Shown here piece after piece: positions 20,449-35,691 of a DNA stretch of 64,000 nt. Position 1 is the stretch's first letter, and the number at the start of each line of letters is the position of its first letter. The translations under genes were made by a program, and so were the position numbers. The stretch spans positions 1-64,000 of the forward strand of contig JAQUAB010000003.1 of NCBI GenBank assembly GCA_028687475.1, read 5' to 3'. Source of the DNA: Candidatus Gracilibacteria bacterium. GTDB lineage: Bacteria > Patescibacteriota > Gracilibacteria > BD1-5 > UBA2023. The notes beneath the pieces were generated by a model. The model did no database searches. It was not told the origin of the DNA and saw nothing but the letters and a program-made list of their open reading frames with translations.

Positions 20449-23400
20449 ATGCACCCTATCTCTACACGAATCATTTCTCTCATTACCCTCTCTCTTCTTG
20501 TTTTCTCAAGTACAAATATTATTTTTCTTGGGAATCTTTCTATAGAAACTGTTTCTGCCTACACCGAAAGTGATGCGAATACATTCGCATACTATCAGAG
20601 AATTCTTCAGGGATCTATGGAGGAATTAGAGAGTGAATTTCGAATCAACTCAACCGTCAGTACGAGCACACTCCAGAATATCAAGAATCTTGTCCAATCA
20701 GCATACGATAGACTTCCTGATTCATCTGATGTTGCTACAGAAAATGCGAGTGCCAAAAGAGGGACTGATCTCGCGATCGACCTCGCTATGAAAAATCCTT
20801 CTACACAAACTCATGTTAGCAATGCAGTAACCGCCATCCAGAAATTTATCACGAGCAGTAAGATTGGGAAGATCACTGGGTCTATCAGTGCGAATCCTTC
20901 TTCAGGAAATGCTCCACTCACTGTGTCATTTCTCGCTACTAATGTCAGTGATCCTTCTGGAGTGAGCCCAACTGCGAGCAATTACGTCTGGTGGATACGT
21001 GAAGATGGTGGATATCGTCGAGAAATCGGCCGTGGAGCGAGTCTCACATACACTTTCAACCAAGAAGGAAGCTATCAGGTTTTTCTCGATGTTATTTCTG
21101 GAAGTCGAAATAAGAAAGGATATACTGATGTTCTTCCGCTTTCTATATCCCAAAATATCCAAGTCAAACCACGACTCGGAGAAATCACACTTCTCGTAAA
21201 TGGGGTCAATGTGAGCACTCTCTCGAAACTCAAAGTCAACCCTAGCGTTGGAAAGATAGGAATCATTCTCGATGCTACAGCATCACGCGCTGTGAGCAAT
21301 GGTACTATTCTGAGAACCAAATGGGATTTCGGAAATGGAAACACTATCGAGTACAATGGATCCCCTGTTATCGAGAGACAAATATATGCCAATGAAGGAA
21401 CGTATACAGTATCTCTAGAATTGACGACGAATGAAGGAACATCATTCAGAAAGGAAATCCAACTCAATATCGTTGATCCTGCCGCTGTAATATCGAGTGA
21501 TAAGAATATTGGATTCGTAGGAGAAAACTTCCAGATGAAGGCACAGACGTATTTCAGTAATACGAAAAATGTGGACTACACATGGACTGTTCAATCAGTA
21601 GATTCCACAAATTCGAGCCCACTGTATACACAAGAATGACAAGCGTTCAGTTACAAATTTCCACAAGTAGGAGATTATATTGTCACATTGATGACAAAAA
21701 ATCCAAATGGATCCGAAGATCGAGATAGTAAAACTATCACTATAGAATCCCATGAACCAATTGTGAATCTGGATGCACCAAGACCAGTTTCATCTGAGAG
21801 ACCAAATACGATACTTTTTGACGCATCCAAGAGTATGGATGCTGATACAAATACTTCAAAAGACCTCACATACAAATGGTCTATCGACGGTAATCTCATT
21901 GCACTCGATAATTCTGAAAAGAATGGTGCTATTGGAACACATGTTTTCAGTGAAAAAGGAACTCATACCGTTTCTCTGACGGTCGCGAATAAATATGGAA
22001 AAGTAAAAACTGTAGACAAAACATTTGATGTCGCATCAACTCTTGCAGTCAATGTAAATATTGTTCCTCGTGCGGCTCCAATTGGAACACTCGTCAGCTT
22101 CCAGGCAATTGCACCAAGAGCAGCATTTTTCGAGTGGAATCCTGGAGATGGATCTGCACCAGTCAATGGTCAGATGGATAATATCGATCATATCTATAAG
22201 AAGACTGGCATTTATTCTGCAACACTGACAGTGAAAAATGTCGATGGAAGTGAGACGAATTCCATAACTCGAAAGGTATATGTCACAGATGCAAGCACAC
22301 CTTTTGCTCTGATTGATGTAAAAAATGCTTCGAATTCCGTGATAGAAGATGAGAACGCATGTGGAGCAGGTGGAGCATATCTCGTCAATCGTTCTGAATG
22401 AACTACACTCGATGGATCAAATTCGATTAATATCGACGGAAATAATACAGGACTTTCGTATACATGGAAATATCTCGACCGTGTCAAGACGGGACCAACT
22501 CTTTCTGAGAAGTTCACAGAACTCGGATGCTTCCCAGTAACACTCACCGTAAAAAGTGCGACAAATGGCGCAAGTTATACGAGCAAACGATATATCCAAA
22601 TAAAAAATATTGTACCAAAACTTACTTCTATTTCTACAAATATTGACCAAAACAAGCAAAGTAGCCAAAAAGTTATTGTAAATGTGACGGCTGATGGCGC
22701 GAGTGATCCTGATGGAGTCATCACAACTTATATTTGGTATTACAAGACAGCGAGCGATGATGAACCACAGAATATAAAAATAACTCAGAGTCCAACAACC
22801 ACTTTCGTTCTTCCAAATGTTACCGAAAAATATACATTCTGAGTGATTCTGGAGGATAATGACGGTGCTCAGACCAATTCCATCGATGTCATAAAAGATC
22901 AAGCTCCTCTCCTTATCAGCAATGAAGATGGAAATTTGAGTATGCCTCTTATTACTCTCACGATTCCAAAAAGTCAGGTACTGGCCGGAGAAAGTGTGGA
23001 CTTTGTCGCGAGTGCCAAGACGATCGTATGAATGGATATAACAAGCAAGAGTGAATATCAGTGGGATTTCGACGGTGATGGAAAAATCGACAAAAAAACG
23101 ACAGAGGCTCGTACCAATTACACCTATAAAAATGCTGGAACATATACAGCGAAAGTAAAAGTGACCTACAACGGTGTCAGCAACTCGAAATACCAGACTA
23201 TCATCGTGAAAAATGAACTGAAAGCGAAAGTAATAGGATATCGATCTGATGATGCTGTATATCTCATCAATACGAGTGCTGGAGTATACGATACTACTTC
23301 ATGGCAAGTCGGAGAAATCCGATCTGATGCGTTGTATAGTATTTCTGTTCCTACAGATATATTCAATGCCGGTAATCAATCATCCAAGATACTCACTGTC

Positions 23401-25419
23401 TCAGCAAATGGAAACGAAAGCTCTAGTGTAGAGATTACACTGAGTGCAATTCAGGATATCAATAATACGCTTTCTGGTGGTATATATCTTCAGTCATACC
23501 CTGTTATCGAAAATGATACGATTCATGTGGCATCGAGGGGAGAGAATGTATTACTTTCACTCTATGGAAATGCTGGAACAAACTATGCCATCGATACGAA
23601 TACGAATATCGATTCTGACACCAATGGCACACCGAATGATGATATTGATAACAAGGACTTCCCTTCTTATATTGATGGTTCTGTCTTTGTTTTTGATAGC
23701 ACGAACATGAAGACTCATTCACAGAAAATGAAACTTTCTGTACTAAAAAATGGAACAATTATCGGAAGTCGAGAAGTAGAAATTATTGCCGACTTCATCG
23801 CTGATACTTCAGACAGCACAACACGCGATATTTCTGGAACTGGATCTGAAGGATTTTCTCAGAAAGATAAAAATAATCTCGAAAATCTCCAGGCAAAAAT
23901 CCGAAATCTCGAGTCCGATGATCGTATTATTCTCACCCAAGAATACAATAGCCTGATAGAAAACTGGGATGATGAACTCGAACGTACGAAAAATCTGATC
24001 GGTATCCAAGAAGAAGTCGAATCAAGCGCTGGCATGACCGATAGTCAAAAGAAAGAATTTGCTACTCTTATTGATACGATTCTCGTAGGTGATGCGACTG
24101 CGACTGATGAGGTCACTGTAGCAACAAAAGTGATCGAGAGTTTGATTCCTGCAGATAATCCGAACAAAACAATCATCACGGAAAAGCTCGAAGCCATAAA
24201 ATCTCACCCTGGAAATCTCACAGAAAATAAGACACTCGGAACAGCGATTCTCGAACTCATCAAGGATGACACGTCTATCGAAGATAAGTATAAACTCATC
24301 ATCCGAAGTCAGCTACAGATTATCGTGAATGGTGGACAAGAAAGTGTCCCAACAAATGAAATCACAACCACAGATTCTGGAAGTAGTGGCATTATGGGAT
24401 TCATAGTAGGAATAGTGAAAGTGTTTGGATTTATTATGCTTATCATTCTTGTGATTGTTTTGGTTGGATTTATTTTCTACCGAGTCACGAAGAAAAAAGA
24501 TGATATTGGTTTCCAAGATTTTCTGATTGATTCTATTTTTCACTCAAGAAATAGAGAAAAAATAGTCACAACAGGAATCACTCAGAATCAGAACAAAGCG
24601 GAAATAAAAGAGTTTTCTGTAGAAGTTGATCCACTTTCAGCGATAAAACCTGAAGAAACCAAAGTATCAGAAAAAGTTGATCCAATGGCATCTTTTAGTC
24701 AAGATGTTCCATCGATAGCTACTACTACATCTCCTGAATGAGAAAATAATCTATGAACTCCTCTTCTACCCGAAGAGCAGGCAAATATTCCTGATTGGCT
24801 CAAGCCACAAGATAGTGCAAATACACTGCCAGAAACAACAACTCTAGCGGAAAGTTCTGAAACAAAATCACAATCAGAAGAACCAATAGAAATAGATCCT
24901 CTACCCACAGAAGTAGATCCTCTGTCTATGGAAAATGGTAGTGTTCCAGATTGGCTCAAAACGCCTTCAGAAACACTCTCAGAAACAATTCCTGAAGCTC
25001 CTGAGACTCCAGAAAATTCTGAAACAACTCCAGAAAATTCTGAAACTCCGAATATACCAGAAGAAAGTTCAGATTCAGAAATTCCGACATCGGATGAAAA
25101 TATTCTCTCAGAAGAGACTCTCACTCCTGATGGAGAGACTGAAAAAAATCGGGCACAGGAAAAAAAAGAAGATGTCTCAGAAACTCCGCTCACCACCAAC
25201 ACAACTCCATGAGAGACACTTCCCGATTGGCTCATAGATTCTGTGTCGAACTCTGAACCAGAGAAGAAACTCGATGAAAAACCAGAAAAAAGTAAACAAC
25301 CTCCACAAAAACAGAAGAAACCAAAAGAAAAAAGTGAAAAAAAGAATGAAGTCACAAAAGAAACTCCGAATACTACTCCCAATACAGATGCATCAGATCT
25401 TCCCGATTGGCTCAAGTAA
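20449..25419 (+). CDS. Giant PKD-domain surface protein with PDWL-repeat cytoplasmic tail
   Basis: 1656 residues. Signal peptide (about 8-37), a helical region (45-135), then a tandem series of PKD/Ig-like domains (about 140-1020; e.g. TKWDFGNGN, FEWNPGDGS, YQWDFDGDG, each ending in a G-TY-V-L-V strand), a helical region (about 1120-1290), one membrane helix (about 1325-1348) and a 300-residue acidic, Pro/Glu-rich tail. The tail carries IPDWLK, VPDWLK, LPDWLI and LPDWLK. The ectodomain suggests adhesion; the tail motif suggests a repeated intracellular docking site. TGA is Gly at about ten places, including the tail. Confidence 0.85.
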
Positions 25420-25423
25420 AACG

Positions 25424-25462
25424 AAATCCTCTAAGAATATTTTCTTCTTAGAGGATTTTTTT
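25424..25462 (+). terminator. Terminator after the giant PKD gene
   Basis: A 14-base perfect stem, AAATCCTCTAAGAA with TTCTTAGAGGATTT, a 7-base loop and a T-run. Very strong intrinsic terminator. Confidence 0.9.
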
Positions 25463-25511
25463 GACGGGAAGAGCCATTCTCTGTATACTGTCGACAATTA
25501 ACTTTTTTTCT

Positions 25512-27857
25512 ATGACAGAACGAGCTCCAACCGATTCAGAATGAATGCCAGAAGAAAATACAGAATCTCTTCTCGCTGAGATTCTTGCATCACAAGAACA
25601 GAAACAAGATATCACGAATAATGATACTCTTTGATGAGAGCAGACCAATATTTCTCCTATATCTCCAGATACTGAGAATTGAAACAAGACTCCAGCTCCG
25701 AAAAAACCACAAGAACCGATTTCTCTTGGAACTTTTCTGAAGCTCGTAGTATCTATATTTTTTGTAGCTATAGTATTCCTCGGAAGTATTGGAGCATATA
25801 TTGTTCTCAATCCAGAAGATGCTGTTTTTCTCATAAAAAATCTGAACATTAACCCGAATGATGTTGCAATTCGACTGAAACAACTCATAAACGGAACTTT
25901 TGGGTCGGTGATGTTCGTTCTATCCATTATATGGATTATTTCACTTTTCCGAGCGTTCTGGACCCCGAAGGACCTCAAGAGAAAAAGAATATTCGCATGG
26001 CTCATAGCAGGAATACTAGCTGTTGTTTTCTTTTCTACACTTACTTTCTGGATATATATATACGGGAAAATCCAGACTATTGACTTCATCAATCTCTCTG
26101 GAAATATACTCATGTACGACAATGACCTCTATAATCATGAAGAAAGTCGAGACAACGCACAAATAACGAGTGGAACAAATATCATTGGTCCAATAACTAT
26201 AATGTTCGATATTCGAGCCAATGCTAAAGCTATAAGCAAAGAATATCTCGTAGATATTCAGAGTTATTCGATAGATAGCGATGGATGAGTATGTAATGAT
26301 GGAACATCAGTAGTTATAGGTAACAATGCACTGGAAGAAAAAAGTATCGTTTGTTCATTCAATCAGGTGAAAACATACAATGTAAAAGGAATTTATAATA
26401 CTATTTCTCAGATTGGAGAACGACAAAAACAAGCAATCCCAATGCGGATCGATCCTATAGAAATCCGAGGAATTGTCTCTATCAAACAGGGGGTAAATAT
26501 ACAAGGAAATAAAATTATCACGCTCGATGCGAGCGGTCTGAAAAAACTCGGAACACCACGATGGATATATACACAATCGAACATCATTGCAGAGGGTATG
26601 AGTATCACAGAAACCCTTTCTGATATTCCACAATATGTTTGTTTCCGGTTATTTAGTGACGTTTGTGATAGAATCTTTGTTCTCGAAGATGCTGAGCAGA
26701 AAGATATACAATGAAGCATTACGAGCGTTCAAGATGAAGTAGATCCTCTTTTATTTCATCTCTCACTTTCTGGAACAAACATCAATCAGAATCAGATTAC
26801 CCAAGTACAGTGGCTGACTATCAACGAACTCTGATGAAAAACATCTATTTGTACGAAATGAAGCTATGCTTGTGAGTATCATTCTTCATCATATGGAACT
26901 CAAAATATCCAGGCGATTGTCGAAATGGCTGACGGACAAAAATATACGTTCGAAACTACTATTCAGATACAAGAACCACTTCGTCTCATGAATAATATGA
27001 AAGTCCTCGATGCAAAGGGTAATCTCCTGAATACAAAAGACACGTACCAAAGTACCCTAAAAGCGTATGTTATAGAGAATGTTCTCACTCCTCCAGCTGT
27101 TCTCACACTCGATGGACGAAATATCGGGATCACAAACCCATGATATTCACTCGAGAATATATCATGGAAAATAGAAAGTCAGAAAGGAATTGAAGAAAAA
27201 CAAGGTGATCTTGTCAGCATCACACTCGACAAACCTATCCGATATACCATCAAGTGAACATATAGTTTTCGAAAACTAAGCACCAATACTCTGGAAGAAG
27301 CACGAGATATTGTGATTATCGATATAGAAAAGAAAAACCTCGTGCCAAGAATCGATATAACAACTTCTTCTGACTATATTCCATCTGTTGTGACCGTTGA
27401 TGCCTCTCAGTCAGAATCGACAAATGGTGAAATCAAGAAATTCATTTTTGATTTCTGAGAAGGAAAAACACCAATCGAATGAGATGCTATCCAACAATAC
27501 GAATATATCACCTCCGGTGACAAGGAAATTTCTGTGACTATTGTCTCAGCGAGCGGCGAACGAGCCACTACAAAAAAAACAGTAGTACTCAAAGATGCTG
27601 TCAAAACTGTGGGATTCACACCAAGTATTACTCCTGGAATTATGAATATGCCTGTCGATTTTGAAGCGACTGGAACAAATGGGCAAGTACAAGACTATAT
27701 ATGGAATTTCTGAGATAATACCCAAACAACCCGTTGATATAGCACAACACATACATTCACGCAAACAGGAGCGTATTCTGTTTCTCTCACTGTGATATAC
27801 ACAGATGGAACGAGAAAAACAGACACAAAAAGATACGAAGTAACGAGTGAAATATAG
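25512..27857 (+). CDS. PKD-domain membrane protein
   Basis: 781 residues. Acidic cytoplasmic N-terminus (about 1-75), two membrane helices (about 78-103 and 131-180 region), then a long extracytoplasmic beta-rich part ending in PKD domains: FIFDFGEGKTPIEG and YIWNFGDNTQTTRGYSTTHTF with GAYSVSLTV. In both, the glycine of the canonical DFG/NFG turn is encoded by TGA. Over a dozen TGA codons in total, including TGA TGA doublets near 25632 and 26831. Follows the giant PKD gene after a terminator, so probably separately transcribed. Likely a surface structural or adhesion protein. Confidence 0.82.
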
Positions 27858-29314: not shown

Positions 29315-30304
29315 CTAAGTAAAACTATACAATAAGACGATTGTGGCAATATAGACGAGAAATATCGCTACCGCATCCCAAGCAAGAATGAGTTGCTTTA
29401 TTTTTGACTTGTAAGTGAGACCAATGATGACAATTGCAGACATGATGACAATCCCGAAAACCGTGATAAGATTGGTATCACTCACATCCGAGAGAAAACG
29501 TCATTTTGTATAGAAAATGTCATCGATAAAGAGAATAAAGACGTTGAAAATATTGCTTCCGAGAAGATTCCCTACTGAGAGATCAATAGAGCCCATACGG
29601 ATAGCCGCGAGTGATATAGCAATCTCTGGAAGTGACGTAGAGATAGCGAGAAATATCGAACCAACGAATGATTGTCCGAGTCCTGTCATGATAGATATTT
29701 TTTCTGCGAAGTGTGGGAGGAACAACGCTGCACCAACGATGATAGAAGCAAATCCGATATACCGAATAATTACCTGTCTGAGCGTGAATTTGTGTTCCTT
29801 GATCTCATCATGAATATCATCAGATTGTTCTCGCTTGGTATACTGATAGATGAGTCGCATCGAACCAAGATACATGATCATAAAAAGTACGCTGATTACC
29901 CCAATTCCTCAGATATTGAACTCTGTAGGGAGAAAGAGTCCAATCCCCACAATAGCTATCAGGATGAGTCCGAGAGCTGCTGCGAGTACGTGACTCTGAG
30001 AGGAATTTGCCAAAAGTGGCTTATCTTTCGGGAGAAATGCATCCATCACCGCAAGAATCCCGAGATTGACAAGACAACTTCCGAGAATGTCACCCGCAGC
30101 CAGATCAGCCGATTGTACGATAGCTGAAGAGCTAATTCCTACCATGAGCTCTGGAAGTGAGGTCACTCCCGCCATGAGAATGAGCCCAATCCACGCCTTC
30201 CCGAGACCAGTCATCTCCGCGAGGAGATCACCATAATAGGAGAGCTTTTTTCCAGCGAAAAATATGAGTGCCGCCGCGGTGAGAAATCAGAAAATATCAG
30301 ACAT
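29315..30304 (-). CDS. Ca2+/cation antiporter (CaCA family, YrbG-like)
   Basis: 329 residues with about ten membrane helices in two inverted halves. Each half has the alpha-repeat signature: TSLPELMVG with GDILGSCLVNLG in the first, TSLPEIAISLAA with GNLLGSNIFNV in the second. These carry the ion-binding glutamates. Expected to exchange Na+ or H+ for Ca2+ at the inner membrane. TGA codons at residue 6, between the halves and before RFLSDVSD are Gly. Starts 12 bases after the CphA-like ATP-grasp stop. Confidence 0.92.
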
Positions 30305-30316
30305 GAGAAGAAGAAA

Positions 30317-31297
30317 TTAGAGAGTAAAAAGTTTTTCGAGTATTCTCTTTCCTGTGTTAACCGAAGTGAGTTCACGGTCACCACCAAGACCCGGAGTTGC
30401 ATTCACTTCGAGGATGACTCAACCTGTTTCAGAAAGTGATTTCGTAAAATCAGAGGATAAGATATCCACTCAGCAAATTCCGAGTCCGAGTTCTTTTGCT
30501 ATACCTACACATACCTCCTTGATACTTGGATGAATAGTATCAGTAATATCTTCTAGTGTTCCACCTGTACCTAGATTGGAGTTTCATCGAAGTTGTAGTT
30601 GCACTCAGCTTGGAAGAATCTGATTGAGCTCATGTCATTGTTTAGCAACAAAATGTATAAGCTCTTCATTTTCTTCGATAAAAGCTAGTGGAGAATTATA
30701 TCCTTCTCCCCGCAATGAATTGTTTTTATTCTCATAAGAAATAAGTTGGTGAATGGTTGATTCTCCATTTCACTTAATAACAGGAGGATTCCTCTGAATA
30801 GCAAGTGTCACTTCCCCAAGAACCACCAATACTCGACACTCATCTCATGAAATCTGTTCCTGAACAATCATTCTCGGATATTTTTCAAATGATTCTCAGA
30901 GCTTCTTTTGGAGCTCAGAGATAGAGGTGATATTCATCTTGACTCCATCACCGTGAGCCCCATCTATTGGCTTGATAACCAGAGGGAAATGAAAATCTCC
31001 AAATACTGTCCAATCGTATTTTGGAAAATCCTGTTCATCGATATATCGTGTCTTTGCTATCGGGAAATGATGTCTCTCCAAAAATGAATAACAGAGTTCC
31101 TTGTCATTGGATATCTTGAAGCCAAGAGATGAGTTCTGTCAAAAATCCGTACTCTTGAAAAGTATCTCTTTTCCATTTCCTTTCACGAGAAAGAAGTTCT
31201 TCTCAGGAATAAGGAGTTCTGTCTTGAGTCCGAGCTTTTCAGCTTCTTCGATGAGTACTTGAGATGAGACAGACCAATAGGTCATAGGTTTTGACAT
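30317..31297 (-). CDS. ATP-grasp ligase, cyanophycin synthetase / GshF-like
   Basis: 326 residues. A stand-alone ATP-grasp domain closest by pattern to the cyanophycin synthetase and GshF central domain: FPLVIKPIDGAHGDGVKMNI, ECRVLVVLGEVTLAIQRNPP, NGESTIHQLI, QLQLRGNSNLGTGGTLEDIT, LGLGICGVDIL and GGVILEVNATPGLGGDREL (metal-binding Glu and Asn). Such enzymes make amide bonds on carboxylates via acyl phosphate. No Mur-ligase domain as in true cyanophycin synthetase. It sits 18 bases behind the 7TM gene and with it and the fused ATP-grasp/peptidase forms an operon. Substrate unknown. Confidence 0.85.
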
Positions 31298-31315
31298 ACA
31301 AGAAGTGTAAAGAAA

Positions 31316-32806
31316 TTATTCTTCCTCGTTCAGCTTTCGCAGAAGTGGAGAGAACCGGAAGTATTCAAAAAGCTGGAGTCACATATATCGTCCGACGAGA
31401 ATATTGAGAACCACTACGAGAATGATGATATCAGGATACGAAATCAGAAAATACTGAAGCGTCTTGTAATCCAGCAAGAGATAAATAATCCCTGTGATAA
31501 TCACATATTGTACAAAATCAAAAATCCCCGCTCGGCTAAACATATCAATATCTTCCTGAAAAACCTTATCAGAAAAGACAATCGTAACAAAAAATGGAAA
31601 AATAATCAGTGAATTATCGAAGATAGCATAATTGATGAGAGAAAGCTCGAAGAAGTTGTCAATACCCAGAATAAAAAGAAATATGGCGATATAAAAACTA
31701 ATAAGGAGAGCGCGTTTCGCATGGAGAAGAAGATGTATCTTTTTCGTGAATAAGTTCACCGCAATAATAGAAACAAGTCCAATAATAATAAATATCATCG
31801 AAGATGAAAAACCGAGCACTACCAGTGTAATAGCGAGAAGAATCGGATAATAAATCCCAAACACATTGAATCCGATAACTTGCTTCAATATATTCAGAAT
31901 CAACACAGCAAATGTAATAGAAAGAAGAGAAGCGAGAAGCTGATAAGAAAATCCTGCATACGCGAGGAATTCGAGAAAACTACTCAGACTGTATATAGTT
32001 TTAGATTTTTCATACGAAATCTCTTGTCCGATGAGTATATCATCTTTTTCTCAGGATGATACGCGCGTCATCAATCCGTAAAACTGATCTTCCGAGATGA
32101 GAAACACTTTTGTTGCTCCAATCTGCGAAAGTGACGACGCGAGAACCTTCGAGAGAAGCGAACGAGAAAAACTCGAAATAATATAGATTTTCTTTTTCGT
32201 GAAACTGATAGGTTTTGTCTTCTGGAGCTTGGTGATATCCGAGAAAAAACCAAGCACATCAGAAGTTCCTACGACAAATATATCACTCTGATCGATATTT
32301 TCCCATATATTCTGACTCTCTTCCGAATTTGATATACTGACTTTTCCCGTGAAGCCTTTGTAGAGGATGTTATTTTTCTCGAAAACATCGCGAATCCCCG
32401 TCTCGATACCAGATCTCTCAGTTCCAACATATGTAAAAACACTATCATATACTCGAATCTTTTGACTCACAATGCCTTCGCAGGAATTATCCTGGGTTGT
32501 GACTTTTGCCTCAAGTGTTACTTCTCCTGGCGTTGTGAAATACCGGAGATATTTTTCCCTATCCTTGACGGTTTCCACCACTTTCTTGTCTCTCCGCAAG
32601 GTATATACGACACTTCCAGAAAAGTCAGAACCACTTCCAGAAGAAAGGATAAATTCATGAGTCGACCCGACTTTGACTTGATCGGGTCAAGTGATCGAAT
32701 AGAGAGTACTACAAGAAATGGGCGCAACCTCAACTACATCCCCCGTCGCTGCGAAGGCAAAAACAGGAATAAAAAGGAAAAAAATGAAAACAAGTATACG
32801 AGTCAT
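31316..32806 (-). CDS. 7TM_transglut-type membrane protein
   Basis: 496 residues. Signal peptide (about 4-20), a beta-rich extracytoplasmic region (22-115) and an alpha/beta region (about 115-245, IFVVGTSDVLGFF, KKIYIISSFSRSLLSKVLA), then about seven membrane helices from about 270. ILKQVIGFNVFGIYYPILLAI followed by LGFSSSMIFIIIGLVSI resembles the 7TM domain elsewhere found fused to an inactive transglutaminase and next to RimK-related ligases. Begins 10 bases after the fused gene's stop. Likely transport, export or membrane coupling of the ligase product (inference). Confidence 0.72.
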
Positions 32807-32816
32807 AAGGAAAAAT

Positions 32817-35141
32817 TTAGAGAAATTCGATGATTTTTAAGTCTTGTATTTTTATTTTTCAGAAAAAGAGTTTCTCGGCATTCCCACCTTCTTTTTCTAT
32901 CCAGTCCTTCACTCGCATATATCCATCGAGATACATTTTATCTTTTTGGTATGTAGTTCATGGAATTCCGCGAGTTCCAGAATGAATGATTCACCGCTTG
33001 AGTCTGACTGCATCAGAAAAAAGAGATTCGAGTGTTTTCTCAGGATACAGAGTTCTCAGAAGATCAATCGTCTCAGAAAATGAAAGTGTATCAGTCATTC
33101 CGAGAAGATAATATTTCACATACATTGCATTTTTCTCATATCATGCAGGAAGATGAGAAAAAGATCTATAAATGGCGAATCACTCTTCATCAGCAAGATA
33201 ATACCCCGTACCGTATTGGAATAATTTGAGTCATTGTGTTTGTCCTGCGAGATATCTCTTGAAGTGTGTTCCTATCTCATGGGTGAGAATCGCATCGATT
33301 TCTTTTTCTCGTATAACTGCATTTCGAGAAATATGAATCTTCACATCTTTCCCGTATGAGACCGACATCCGCGAGAGGTTCCCGCTCTCGATACTTATAG
33401 GAATTTTCTTGATATTATGTGTCTCAAAATATGCATGAATAGCACTAATAATCTGATCCAGAGTCAGAATTCTTCATAAAATTGCATCATCAGTTTTGTT
33501 TTGTTGACCCAACAACACTTTCTCTGTGGCTATCTGGAGAAGTTCCGTGTTCGTTTCTCAGAAAAGAAGAGAATTATAACGAAGTATCTCTTCATGATTT
33601 TCTGTTTTATATGCTTGTACCAAGGAAAGTTTGTTCTGAATTTCCTCGATTTTTTCTCGATACAATTCCGCTATATCGAGTCATATTGACCGAAATCAGA
33701 GCGCTTTTTCCATGAGAAGATCGAGAGAACTCTTGAGAAATTCTATTTTTTTGTCATCAGGGAAACGGTAACGAAAGACAGGATTGAAACCAATAGGATT
33801 CGCAATGAATTCATCGAGAAGAGCAAAATAATTTTCTGGTTTCAGGAGAGAAGAAAGGTTTATTTTTCGCGAAACTCGATACACTGCATCATCGAAATCT
33901 ATCAATTCTTTTGTCCATTTCACATCATTTTCGATTTTTCGATTGACGACGTATATGCTCGGATTAATCAGATAATCTTTCAGTATTTCTGTTCAGAGAA
34001 TTATCGTGTTTTTTTCATCTGAAACAATATCGAACTGATCGAGAAGCACAGAAACATGAGAATCGGTGAAAATATGAACTGGATGGTTTCAGAGAAAATC
34101 TATAATATCTTTTGAAACAGTGGAATTCTTTTTTTGAATATCTATTTTTACGATTACCTCCCTATCTCCGACAATACTATTCTGTTCGAGGTACAATATT
34201 TTTTTTCATTTCTCAGAAAAAAGCGTTTCTGTATGAAACAGGGTTTTTGCGATTTCGACTCATTTTTCTGGAGAAAGCACTTTGAGTCAGTCGATTTTCT
34301 TGAGTCGATTTTCGAGTGGAACGCGATTCACATTTTGGATTTTGAGTCCTGCACGAGCATTAATCTCGAGCAACTTGGGACCATTTTTGGTGATCACCCA
34401 ATCCATCCCAACAAATCCCAATCCAGAGAACATCTGAACTTGTGATGACAAAAGTAGAATATCATCCCAAAATGGAAGAGTCTTTCCTTTGAGTCCAGAG
34501 AATTCTGCAGGAAAAGCATGTGAATACGTTTTTTGATTCTGATAAAAACTCAAGATTTCTCCATTCGCAATATTGACACCAAGTCATATGGCTCACAAAT
34601 CGAGATTTGCCTTATTCCCAGATTCTGGCGTCGGAATGCGCACCATGGCAATGACAGGAACATAGTTGTACACCACAACACGTATATCCGCGAGCCCATA
34701 GCGACAATACCACTGGAAATCTGATCCAGGTGCGAGAAGTTCTTCGATAATAATCGTATCTGAAGATCCATGAAGTGAAAAAGATCCATGAAGAATATCG
34801 ATCATATGCAGTTTTATCTCCTCTTCGGTCCATATTTCATCCTGAATGAGAAAATTTCCTTTTTCTTTTTTTACTATCAATATTCCTCGTCCACGACTTC
34901 ATTTGTTCGGTTTTATCACAAAACTCGTTGCAGAAATTGACTGCAAAGAAAATGCATGAAGTTCCTGCTGAGATGCAATAGTGAAATATGTCTCTGCGAA
35001 CGGAATGCCCCGACTCGACAAAAAATTTTTGGTTTTGAGTTTGCTATCAGCCAAAGACATTGATTCGAGTGAATTCTTCGTTCGAATATACCGAAGATTT
35101 CGGGCATTCATCCCGAGAATGCCGTGAGAAAAAAATTTCAT
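32817..35141 (-). CDS. Fused RimK-related ATP-grasp ligase and DUF1704 (MATCAP-type) metallopeptidase
   Basis: 774 residues in one frame under code 25; I checked every codon from 34290 to the stop for TAA/TAG and found none. Residues 1-285: alpha-L-glutamate-ligase-related ATP-grasp (GILGMNARNLRYI, SKLKTKNFLSSRGIP, VIKPNKGSRGRGIL with K77, FVGMDWV, LLEINARAGL at 257-266). From about 330: DUF1704-like region with HEIGTH at 621-626 and EEGFA at 652-656, matching the HExxxH and QEGLA signatures; the glycine of EEGFA is a TGA. No membrane helix: cytosolic. First gene of the operon. Confidence 0.85.
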
Positions 35142-35269: not shown

Positions 35270-35691
35270 TGGTGGAGATGGCGAGAACTGCCCTCGCGTC
35301 TAAGAAGGTACCGACTTTGCATCTACTGTTCGTATTCTATTTTAGATACGATTCTGCGGCAGGAAAACAGACAAAAAAGCAGAAAAGCATTTATTCATAT
35401 ACTCACGCTCCTATGAAATAATGAGAACTTCAGAGAGTGGACTTATAAATACATTTTTATCTTATAAGTTTCAGATAAAAACGTTTGTAGCAGGCCATTT
35501 GGCACTCAGACAAGAGTCAGGCTACTATGACTACGCAACGTAAGCTGGAGTCATTGCTCCGCGAAATGCATTTTTAAGAGCAGTAAGTGGTGATTTTGCA
35601 CCTATTGGTTTCCCCTTTGATAACGAGGCGAGGCGCCCCGGAACAGCACAAAGCAAGTACGAGTCTTCCTATCGAATACTATATCATCCCC
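35270..35691 (-). ncRNA. ssrA: Transfer-messenger RNA (tmRNA)
   Basis: 422 bases. The 5' end GGGGATGATATAGTATTCGA and the 3' end CATCTCCACCA give the tRNA-like acceptor stem (GGGGATG with CATCTCC) with an encoded CCA. The 3' T-arm-like hairpin GCGAG/CTCGC is at 35280-35297, with an atypical loop. A tag frame starting at the resume codon GCA (35599 downward) runs 22 codons, beginning AKSPLTAL and ending PAYVA, to TAG at 35531. tmRNA frees stalled ribosomes and marks their products for proteolysis. The gene identity is firm from its ends; the tag frame is a prediction. Confidence 0.9.

What the first reader, a model, noticed from the sequence alone, without database searches (positions are those of the whole stretch)
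30317..35141. Operon of a fused ATP-grasp/DUF1704 peptidase, a 7TM_transglut protein and a CphA-like ATP-grasp
Three genes 10-18 bases apart combine two unrelated peptide-bond-forming ATP-grasp types, a MATCAP-type metallopeptidase and a 7TM protein of the kind known beside RimK-related ligases. This looks like a complete make-attach-trim or export system for a poly-amino-acid or peptide tag. The combination, with ligase and peptidase in one polypeptide, is the best candidate here for an undescribed system.
Basis: partly seen in the sequence, partly recalled or inferred. Interest (0 to 1): 0.88.

Follow-up and report, generated by a model that had tools for sequence, protein, structure and literature searches.

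The report
Peptide make-and-trim enzyme cassette in CPR bacteria
[quoted passage not shown] it looks like a rebuilt version of a recently found Pseudomonas envelope-stress system, with the original protease replaced by a relative of the enzyme that trims tubulin in our cells.

Summary
The three genes are real, but open only under code 25 (TGA=Gly). Gene B (496 aa) = signal peptide, PKD and alpha/beta ectodomain, 7TM_transglut. Gene C (326 aa) = the ATP-grasp part alone of a cyanophycin-synthetase-like enzyme. A and B are an ancient unit: A matches in 204 and B in 191 of 288 genomes of the class, mostly adjacent, and the 7TM/ATP-grasp pair recurs in Pseudomonadota, Campylobacterota, Cyanobacteria, Omnitrophota and archaea. 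It is the Rlo operon of Pseudomonas (2025: RloA retropepsin, RloB 7TM, RloC ATP-grasp), remodelled. In other CPR genomes RloC carries a C-terminal RloA-type retropepsin; D[TS]G is kept in 27 of 27 with no MATCAP nearby. Where MATCAP is fused the domain persists but the motif is lost (3 of 65 keep it). Fusion arose at least twice, and a third lineage with MATCAP next door has Asp changed to Asn. I infer that MATCAP replaced the retropepsin. Likely role: synthesis and length control of a probably glutamate-rich peptide acting at the envelope through B; the product is unproven. C is an optional add-on. New variant of a known kind.

The parts
32817..35141 (-). Gene A, 774 aa: RloC-type ATP-grasp + pseudo-retropepsin + MATCAP
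   Evidence: ORF under code 25; Pfam/NCBIfam; found in 204 of 288 class genomes; fold model pLDDT 90.6
34272..35129 (-). ATP-grasp domain of A (residues 5-290)
   Evidence: TIGR02291 202 bits, PF14397 180 bits; invariant K77, P78, G81, G84, G86, D152, R154, D247, E259, N261, R263 in 29 relatives; RimK Z about 17
33951..34199 (-). Middle beta domain of A (residues about 315-397): retropepsin derived, catalytic DTG replaced by DIQ
   Evidence: Homology is transitive through relatives: PF05618 over cut-off in split relatives; profile chain window family - standard-code fused - stand-alone RloA; motif tally; strand pattern in model
32820..33854 (-). MATCAP metallocarboxypeptidase domain of A (residues 430-774)
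   Evidence: PF08014 76 bits; human MATCAP Z 24.6
33264..33281 (-). HEIGTH (residues 621-626), zinc-binding HExxxH of MATCAP
   Evidence: H621, E622, H626 invariant in 29 relatives; HExxxH in 76 of 77 fused proteins
33180..33188 (-). EEG motif (residues 652-654), third metal ligand of MATCAP
   Evidence: E653 and G654 invariant; motif as described for human TMCP1 (PMC10499314)
31316..32806 (-). Gene B, 496 aa: signal peptide, ectodomain, 7TM_transglut
   Evidence: PF14402 42 bits, NCBIfam RloB model positions 311-507 below its cut-off; 191 of 288 class genomes; model pLDDT 79
32423..32701 (-). PKD/Ig-like ectodomain of B (residues 36-128), followed by an alpha/beta domain to about residue 250
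   Evidence: PKD_4 in relative L102; PKD structures among fold matches; secondary structure of model
31322..31945 (-). 7TM part of B (residues 288-495)
   Evidence: PF14402; helices in model
30317..31297 (-). Gene C, 326 aa: CphA-like ATP-grasp, accessory
   Evidence: TIGR02068 225 bits at 159-448 of 862; linked copies in G182, G079, G245, G131, G285, G189, G173, G010
29315..30304 (-). Gene D, 329 aa: CaCA-type Na+/Ca2+ exchanger, 12 bp behind C; possible operon member
   Evidence: PF01699 95 bits; a homologue lies divergently beside B in L092-L094

Best explanation
Genes A and B are a Patescibacteria-type Rlo cassette. The ATP-grasp domain of A, in the cytosol, uses ATP to add amino acids (most likely glutamate or another acidic residue) to a growing peptide or carrier. 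The MATCAP domain on the same chain, an HExxxH metallocarboxypeptidase, removes residues from the C-terminal end of that same product and so sets its length or turns it over. It has taken over the job that a retropepsin (RloA) does in the ancestral system; the old retropepsin remains as a middle domain without its catalytic motif. B, a 7TM protein with an outward-facing PKD and alpha/beta ectodomain, carries the product, or its effect, across the membrane to the envelope. C is an optional second ligase that probably adds another residue or extends the product. Shown here by computation: domain content, intact catalytic residues in ATP-grasp and MATCAP, linkage, the retropepsin origin and decay, at least two fusion events. 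Inferred: same-substrate ligase/peptidase pairing, glutamate as residue, role of B in export or sensing, role of C.
For: A and B each occur in about two thirds of 288 genomes of the class, in standard-code and code-25 families alike, mostly adjacent. The 7TM gene precedes the RloC gene in 71 of 80 named loci of many phyla, with a canonical rloA-rloB-rloC order in Legionella adelaidensis and a direct 7TM-ATP-grasp fusion in Halobacterium sp. DL1. Split CPR relatives are RloC-RloA fusions (PF05618 E 7e-8 and 3e-7, over cut-off; 26 of 26 score above 15 bits with a stand-alone RloA profile, shuffled maximum 8.8). D[TS]G: 27 of 27 without MATCAP nearby, 10 of 13 intact split genes with a separate MATCAP (the other three read NTG), 3 of 65 fused. 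Fused forms have at least two origins on the ATP-grasp tree. Peptidase swap: G113, same order, has 7TM - RloC without MATCAP - membrane-anchored DTG retropepsin, while PF05618 is absent from the other 191 of 192 class genomes. In Pseudomonas RloA cleaves polyglutamate in vitro and loss of RloB or RloC suppresses loss of RloA (PMC12239564). Human MATCAP-family enzymes are carboxypeptidases, one also deglutamylating (PMC10499314). A QEGLA/MATCAP gene is 27.5-fold up at low salt in Photobacterium damselae (PMC10308900), and Rlo mutants fail at low osmolarity.
Against: No enzyme of this subfamily has been assayed and the product of RloC is unknown even in Pseudomonas. RloA is secreted, while MATCAP in A sits on a protein with no signal, so the trimming would move from outside to inside the cell; replacement therefore may be of function in the pathway, not of the exact step. 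The window's own middle domain is not recognised as retropepsin directly (1.4 bits; profile comparison not significant); the case is transitive. In 7 of 38 class loci no B was found near A. A sits below the NCBI cut-offs for RloC (202 against 314) and QEGLA (102 against 339). G113 RloC lies outside the fused clade, so its cassette was probably acquired whole and the swap is not a single-gene event.
Confidence: 0.6

Rival explanations
1. Cell-wall variant: the ligase adds residues to a peptidoglycan stem or bridge peptide (or a lipid-linked precursor), MATCAP trims it, and B helps to move or sense the wall precursor.
For: Bifunctional penicillin-binding proteins follow the cassette in L132 and L140; an L102-type Aminotran_4 gene precedes it in two families; Rlo mutants have cell-shape and beta-lactam phenotypes (PMC12239564); the fold of the ligase also resembles D-Ala-D-Ala ligases (Z 14-16).
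Against: PBP linkage seen in only 2 of about 60 mapped loci (not counted systematically); no Mur-type or lipid-carrier gene is regularly linked; sequence matches RimK/RloC, not Ddl or Fem enzymes.
Confidence: 0.2
2. Protein tagging: A adds and removes a residue at the C-terminus of a specific protein, a bacterial counterpart of the tubulin tyrosine ligase / MATCAP cycle or of RimK acting on ribosomal protein S6.
For: Ligase fold closest to RimK and ArgX/LysX, which act on protein carriers; MATCAP is the eukaryotic tubulin carboxypeptidase; ligase and peptidase in one chain give a switch.
Against: No conserved carrier-protein gene beside the cassette; the membrane partner B does not fit a ribosomal target.
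Confidence: 0.15
3. Storage or capsule polymer: A and C make a cyanophycin-like or poly-amino-acid polymer, with MATCAP as depolymerase.
For: C matches the CphA ATP-grasp part; L098 carries the CphA Mur-ligase half in the operon (151 bits); up to four ATP-grasp genes in one cassette (L100, L131).
Against: The Mur-ligase half was found in one mapped locus only; C lacks the N and M domains of CphA; C is absent from most genomes that have A and B; genomes of 1 Mb rarely store polymers.
Confidence: 0.12
4. Chance neighbourhood of independent enzymes.
For: Seven class loci lack B near A; C is often elsewhere.
Against: Adjacency across many phyla, direct fusions of 7TM to ATP-grasp and of ATP-grasp to retropepsin and MATCAP.
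Confidence: 0.02

Closest known systems
rloABC operon, Pseudomonas aeruginosa (Lormand et al., mBio 2025, PMC12239564)
   Same: 7TM_transglut protein next to a TIGR02291-type ATP-grasp, plus a peptidase; same gene pair and homologous ATP-grasp and 7TM parts.
   Different: No secreted retropepsin; its domain is fused behind the ATP-grasp and has lost the catalytic motif; MATCAP added; B has PKD and alpha/beta ectodomain where no inactive transglutaminase was recognised.
QEGLA (TIGR02421) clusters of Pseudomonadota: FGase, MATCAP and glutathione-synthetase-like ATP-grasp
   Same: MATCAP next to an ATP-grasp enzyme (L148, L149).
   Different: Another ATP-grasp subfamily (GSH-S), FGase beside or fused to MATCAP, no 7TM partner. 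One CPR operon, L126, joins both neighbourhoods.
MATCAP/TMCP tubulin carboxypeptidases with tubulin tyrosine ligase
   Same: Same peptidase fold and HExxxH + EEG motifs; ATP-grasp ligase as the opposing activity.
   Different: Both activities on one chain; no tubulin; target unknown.
RimK-RimB (ribosomal protein S6 polyglutamylation)
   Same: ATP-grasp with RimK fold and an opposing retropepsin of the same PF05618 family.
   Different: No membrane partner in Rim; RimK subfamily cut-off not reached (39 against 143 bits).
Cyanophycin synthetase CphA1
   Same: Gene C matches its ATP-grasp (G) domain.
   Different: N-terminal and Mur-ligase domains are missing in C.

Membership tests
Rlo operon | ATP-grasp homologous to RloC (TIGR02291), coupled to a 7TM gene | tested here: met
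   PF14397 180 bits; TIGR02291 is the best NCBIfam match at 202 bits; one continuous tree with RloC of Pseudomonadota and archaea; B adjacent
Rlo operon | RloC passes NCBI curated cut-off (314 bits) | tested here: not met
   202 bits
Rlo operon | 7TM_transglut domain | tested here: met
   PF14402 42 bits, cut-off 25
Rlo operon | Inactive transglutaminase ectodomain in RloB | tested here: inconclusive
   No Pfam match; PKD and alpha/beta domain predicted instead; B N-terminal profile does not hit Pseudomonadota RloB
Rlo operon | Separate secreted retropepsin RloA with DTG | tested here: not met
   PF05618 absent from the own genome; a decayed domain lies inside A
Rlo operon | Role in hypo-osmotic tolerance and cell shape | not testable with these tools
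   Known only from Pseudomonas (PMC12239564)
MATCAP (PF08014) | Profile and fold match | tested here: met
   76 bits, cut-off 27; Z 24.6 to 7z5g
MATCAP (PF08014) | HExxxH and EEG metal-binding motifs | tested here: met
   HEIGTH 621-626 and EEG 652-654
MATCAP (PF08014) | Carboxypeptidase activity | not testable with these tools
   Needs an assay
QEGLA proteins (TIGR02421) | NCBI curated cut-off 339 bits | tested here: not met
   102 bits
RimK (TIGR00768) | NCBI curated cut-off 143 bits | tested here: not met
   A 39 bits, C 74 bits
Cyanophycin synthetase (gene C) | ATP-grasp plus N-terminal and Mur-ligase domains in one chain | tested here: not met
   Only model positions 159-448 of 862 matched
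Retropepsin PF05618 (middle domain of A) | Significant profile match of the window protein itself | tested here: not met
   1.4 bits; homology only through relatives
Retropepsin PF05618 (middle domain of A) | Catalytic D[TS]G | tested here: not met
   DIQ in the window

The most novel reading that the evidence does not exclude
Across most of a class of CPR bacteria, envelope physiology depends on a non-ribosomal peptide that one three-domain protein both polymerises and trims, a bacterial write-and-erase enzyme analogous to the tubulin ligase/MATCAP cycle but joined in one chain, with a dead retropepsin kept as substrate guide, and with lineage-specific sets of up to four ATP-grasp ligases that diversify the peptide.
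Probability: 0.35. Interest if true: 0.8.

Novelty: new variant of a known kind. Interest (0 to 1): 0.62.

Why it matters
It shows that the Rlo system, so far reported as almost confined to Proteobacteria, is a core feature of much of the candidate phyla radiation and also occurs in Cyanobacteria, Omnitrophota and archaea. The replacement of a retropepsin by a MATCAP peptidase points to what both enzymes cut: the product of the ATP-grasp ligase. It gives a bacterial setting for the MATCAP family, whose bacterial members (annotated only as 'flavohemoglobin expression-modulating QEGLA') have no known role, and a single soluble protein on which ligase and peptidase can be assayed together.

Tried and rejected
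Iyer et al. 2009 on amidoligase gene neighbourhoods (PMC3268129) is not held, so whether it already lists DUF1704/7TM/ATP-grasp neighbourhoods could not be checked; from memory it describes related links and introduced the 7TM_transglut family. Literature search for DUF1704 found one unrelated paper; no held paper describes the fusion. Fold search with B gave no convincing match for its alpha/beta or 7TM part; absence of a transglutaminase match there is not evidence of absence. Direct profile comparison of the window family's middle domain with RloA was not significant; rejected as a stand-alone argument, used only through relatives. A single-gene peptidase swap in G113 was considered and rejected: the tree puts its RloC outside the fused clade, so the cassette was probably replaced whole. 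Graspetide/RiPP cassette rejected: no precursor-like small ORF recurs and the unit is near-universal in the class. The promoter scan found no more sites than shuffles.
Full report
OBSERVATION. The window is read with genetic code 25: ORF coverage is 0.91 with TGA=Gly and 0.61 with code 11. On the minus strand three ORFs follow each other with gaps of 10 and 18 bases: A 35141-32817 (774 aa), B 32806-31316 (496 aa), C 31297-30317 (326 aa); none is intact in code 11. A calcium/sodium exchanger gene D starts 12 bp behind C (30304-29315). Upstream of A lie a terminator-like hairpin (35253-35222) and a tmRNA gene (35691-35270), so A is probably the first gene of its unit.

DOMAINS. A: ATPgrasp_ST (180 bits) and TIGR02291 'alpha-L-glutamate ligase-like' (202 bits) over residues 5-290; MATCAP PF08014 (76 bits) and QEGLA (102 bits) over 417-772. 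Among 29 relatives the ATP-grasp residues K77, P78, G81, G84, G86, D152, R154, D247, E259, N261, R263 and the peptidase residues H621, E622, H626, E653, G654 are invariant. The peptidase motifs are those of human MATCAP/TMCP enzymes (HExxxH and EEG; PMC10499314). HExxxH is kept in 76 of 77 fused proteins. The AlphaFold2 model (pLDDT 90.6, pTM 0.54, so the relative placing of domains is unsure) aligns to human MATCAP (Z 24.6, rmsd 2.7, 275 residues) and to RimK/ArgX (Z about 17). B: 7TM_transglut at 289-488; N-terminal signal peptide, Ig/PKD-like domain and alpha/beta domain in the model (pLDDT 79), PKD recognised in relative L102. C: only the ATP-grasp part of cyanophycin synthetase (225 bits at model positions 159-448).

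DISTRIBUTION AND LINKAGE. In 288 genomes of the class A matches in 204 and B in 191, each in most families, code 25 or standard. In 38 mapped class loci B is within 250 bp of A on the same strand in 25, in the same gene run with one to several genes between in 6, not nearby in 7. In a scan of one genome per species 80 named loci were kept; the 7TM gene is directly adjacent to the ATP-grasp gene in 71, in CPR lineages (Gracilibacteria, Absconditabacterales, Peregrinibacteria, Peribacteria, Moranbacteria, Kerfeldbacteria, Shapirobacteria, Dojkabacteria and others) and in Gammaproteobacteria, Campylobacterota, Bdellovibrionota, a cyanobacterium, Omnitrophota and a Methanosarcinales archaeon. In Halobacterium sp. 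DL1 the 7TM and the ATP-grasp are one protein. C is found at E 1e-20 in 38 of 288 class genomes and sits with A/B in eight other genomes (G182, G079, G245, G131, G285, G189, G173, G010); in others it lies elsewhere. Similar CphA-like ATP-grasps are part of cassettes in other classes (L126, L131), and L098 has the CphA Mur-ligase half. Additional ligases are thus a recurrent but optional layer.

LINK TO RLO. Legionella adelaidensis carries the canonical order rloA (RimK/LysX family protein), rloB (inactive transglutaminase), rloC (alpha-L-glutamate ligase-like). In P. aeruginosa RloA is a secreted retropepsin that cleaves polyglutamate in vitro; loss of RloB or RloC suppresses the low-osmolarity and other defects of strains without RloA peptidases (PMC12239564). 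That paper reports RloB as 96% proteobacterial; the present searches show the 7TM/RloC pair to be much wider.

THE MISSED DOMAIN. Between ATP-grasp and MATCAP, A has an all-beta stretch with the pattern 'x(K/R)(V/I)Dxx ... (I/L)LGxxxLxxFLIDP'. In other CPR classes the ATP-grasp protein is about 470 aa long and its C-terminal part is PF05618, the RloA/RimB retropepsin family (E 7e-8 and 3e-7, over the cut-off). A profile from 18 stand-alone RloA domains gives all 26 split proteins over 15 bits (median 44; shuffled maximum 8.8), but 13 of 74 MATCAP-fused ones. Profile comparison: window family to standard-code fused, 99.9%, E 1e-34; standard-code fused to stand-alone RloA, 96.9%, E 1.6e-10; window family to RloA directly, not significant. 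So the homology of the window's domain is transitive. After removal of duplicates the D[TS]G motif is present in 27 of 27 split genes with no MATCAP in the locus, in 10 of 13 intact split genes with a separate MATCAP, and in 3 of 65 fused genes (for the two f49 loci, L131 and L144, the pattern may be met elsewhere in the stretch). The three split exceptions (L128-L130) have the MATCAP gene immediately behind and read NTG, an Asp-to-Asn change. The ATP-grasp tree (quick method, 127 rows) puts fused genes in one clade of 62 (support 97) and one separate pair, L136/L137 (100), whose motif reads DTS. Hence three lineages show loss or change of the retropepsin motif in company of MATCAP. Conversely, the only class genome of 192 with a PF05618 match, G113, has 7TM - ATP-grasp without MATCAP - a membrane-anchored DTG retropepsin in a row; its ATP-grasp branches outside the fused clade, so that cassette was probably acquired whole.

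MECHANISM. The simplest reading is that the peptidase in each version acts on the product of the ATP-grasp ligase: first the retropepsin, later the MATCAP carboxypeptidase, now on the ligase itself. Ligase and peptidase are cytosolic in A; B would connect the product to the envelope. Glutamate is the best guess for the residue, since RloA has a positively charged channel and cleaves polyglutamate (PMC12239564) and the relatives of both domains act on glutamates (RimK; TMCP2), but this is inference. A change of compartment (secreted RloA, cytosolic MATCAP) is the main weakness. A further lead: a QEGLA/MATCAP gene in Photobacterium damselae is induced 27.5-fold at 1% against 3% NaCl (PMC10308900), and Rlo peptidases are needed at low osmolarity. 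QEGLA genes stand beside another ATP-grasp (glutathione-synthetase-like) and with FGase; in L126 FGase and a CphA-like ATP-grasp follow RloB-RloC-MATCAP in one operon. MATCAP thus pairs with ATP-grasp ligases of at least two subfamilies.

NOVELTY. The parts are known and the Rlo core is known. New, as far as the held literature shows, are the fused ligase/pseudo-retropepsin/MATCAP protein, its near-universal presence in a CPR class, the evidence for peptidase replacement, and the accessory ligase sets. I rate it a new variant of a known kind. Iyer et al. 2009 could not be read and may contain part of the neighbourhood.

Noticed in passing
window 35270-35691, minus strand: tmRNA gene (Rfam 71.6 bits, full length) directly upstream of gene A; ARAGORN missed it. 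A terminator-like hairpin follows at 35253-35222.
   Followed up: partly
window 29315-30304; L092 4252-5208, L093 6387-7349, L094 4074-5051, L141 10040-10981: A CaCA-type Na+/Ca2+ exchanger sits behind C in the window and beside B in an order-level relative group; possibly linked to Ca2+ binding by PKD domains or acidic peptides.
   Followed up: no
L099 6994-8610, L100 10949-12637, L094 9102-10724: Second, longer MATCAP-like proteins (538-562 aa) near or in cassettes of code-25 relatives that already have the fused MATCAP; the L094 copy lacks the EEG motif.
   Followed up: partly
L100 8052-10865; L131 and L144; L132, L143, L145: Up to four ATP-grasp ligase genes in one cassette.
   Followed up: partly
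L126 (4013-12418): One operon joins RloB, RloC-retropepsin, MATCAP, N-formylglutamate amidohydrolase-like, ATP-grasp and CphA-like ATP-grasp, merging the Rlo and QEGLA neighbourhoods.
   Followed up: partly
L150 5164-6918: Halobacterium sp. DL1 plasmid: 7TM fused directly to the RloC-type ATP-grasp in an unannotated ORF of 584 aa.
   Followed up: no
L152 4872-7070: In G113 the 7TM protein (732 aa) has a long glutamate/lysine-rich low-complexity stretch in its presumed ectodomain.
   Followed up: no
L126, L132, L141 upstream of B: YebC and RuvC genes precede the cassette in several split-type CPR loci.
   Followed up: no
L095 8615-9520, L096 6160-7062: In one genus-level group an FtsX-like protein takes the place next to A where B normally stands.
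   Followed up: no
L118 8761-11155: Gene A is broken into two overlapping ORFs in G017, by a frameshift or an assembly error.
   Followed up: no
window 20449-25419 and 25461-27857: Large PKD-repeat proteins (1656 and 798 aa) encoded nearby on the plus strand.
   Followed up: no
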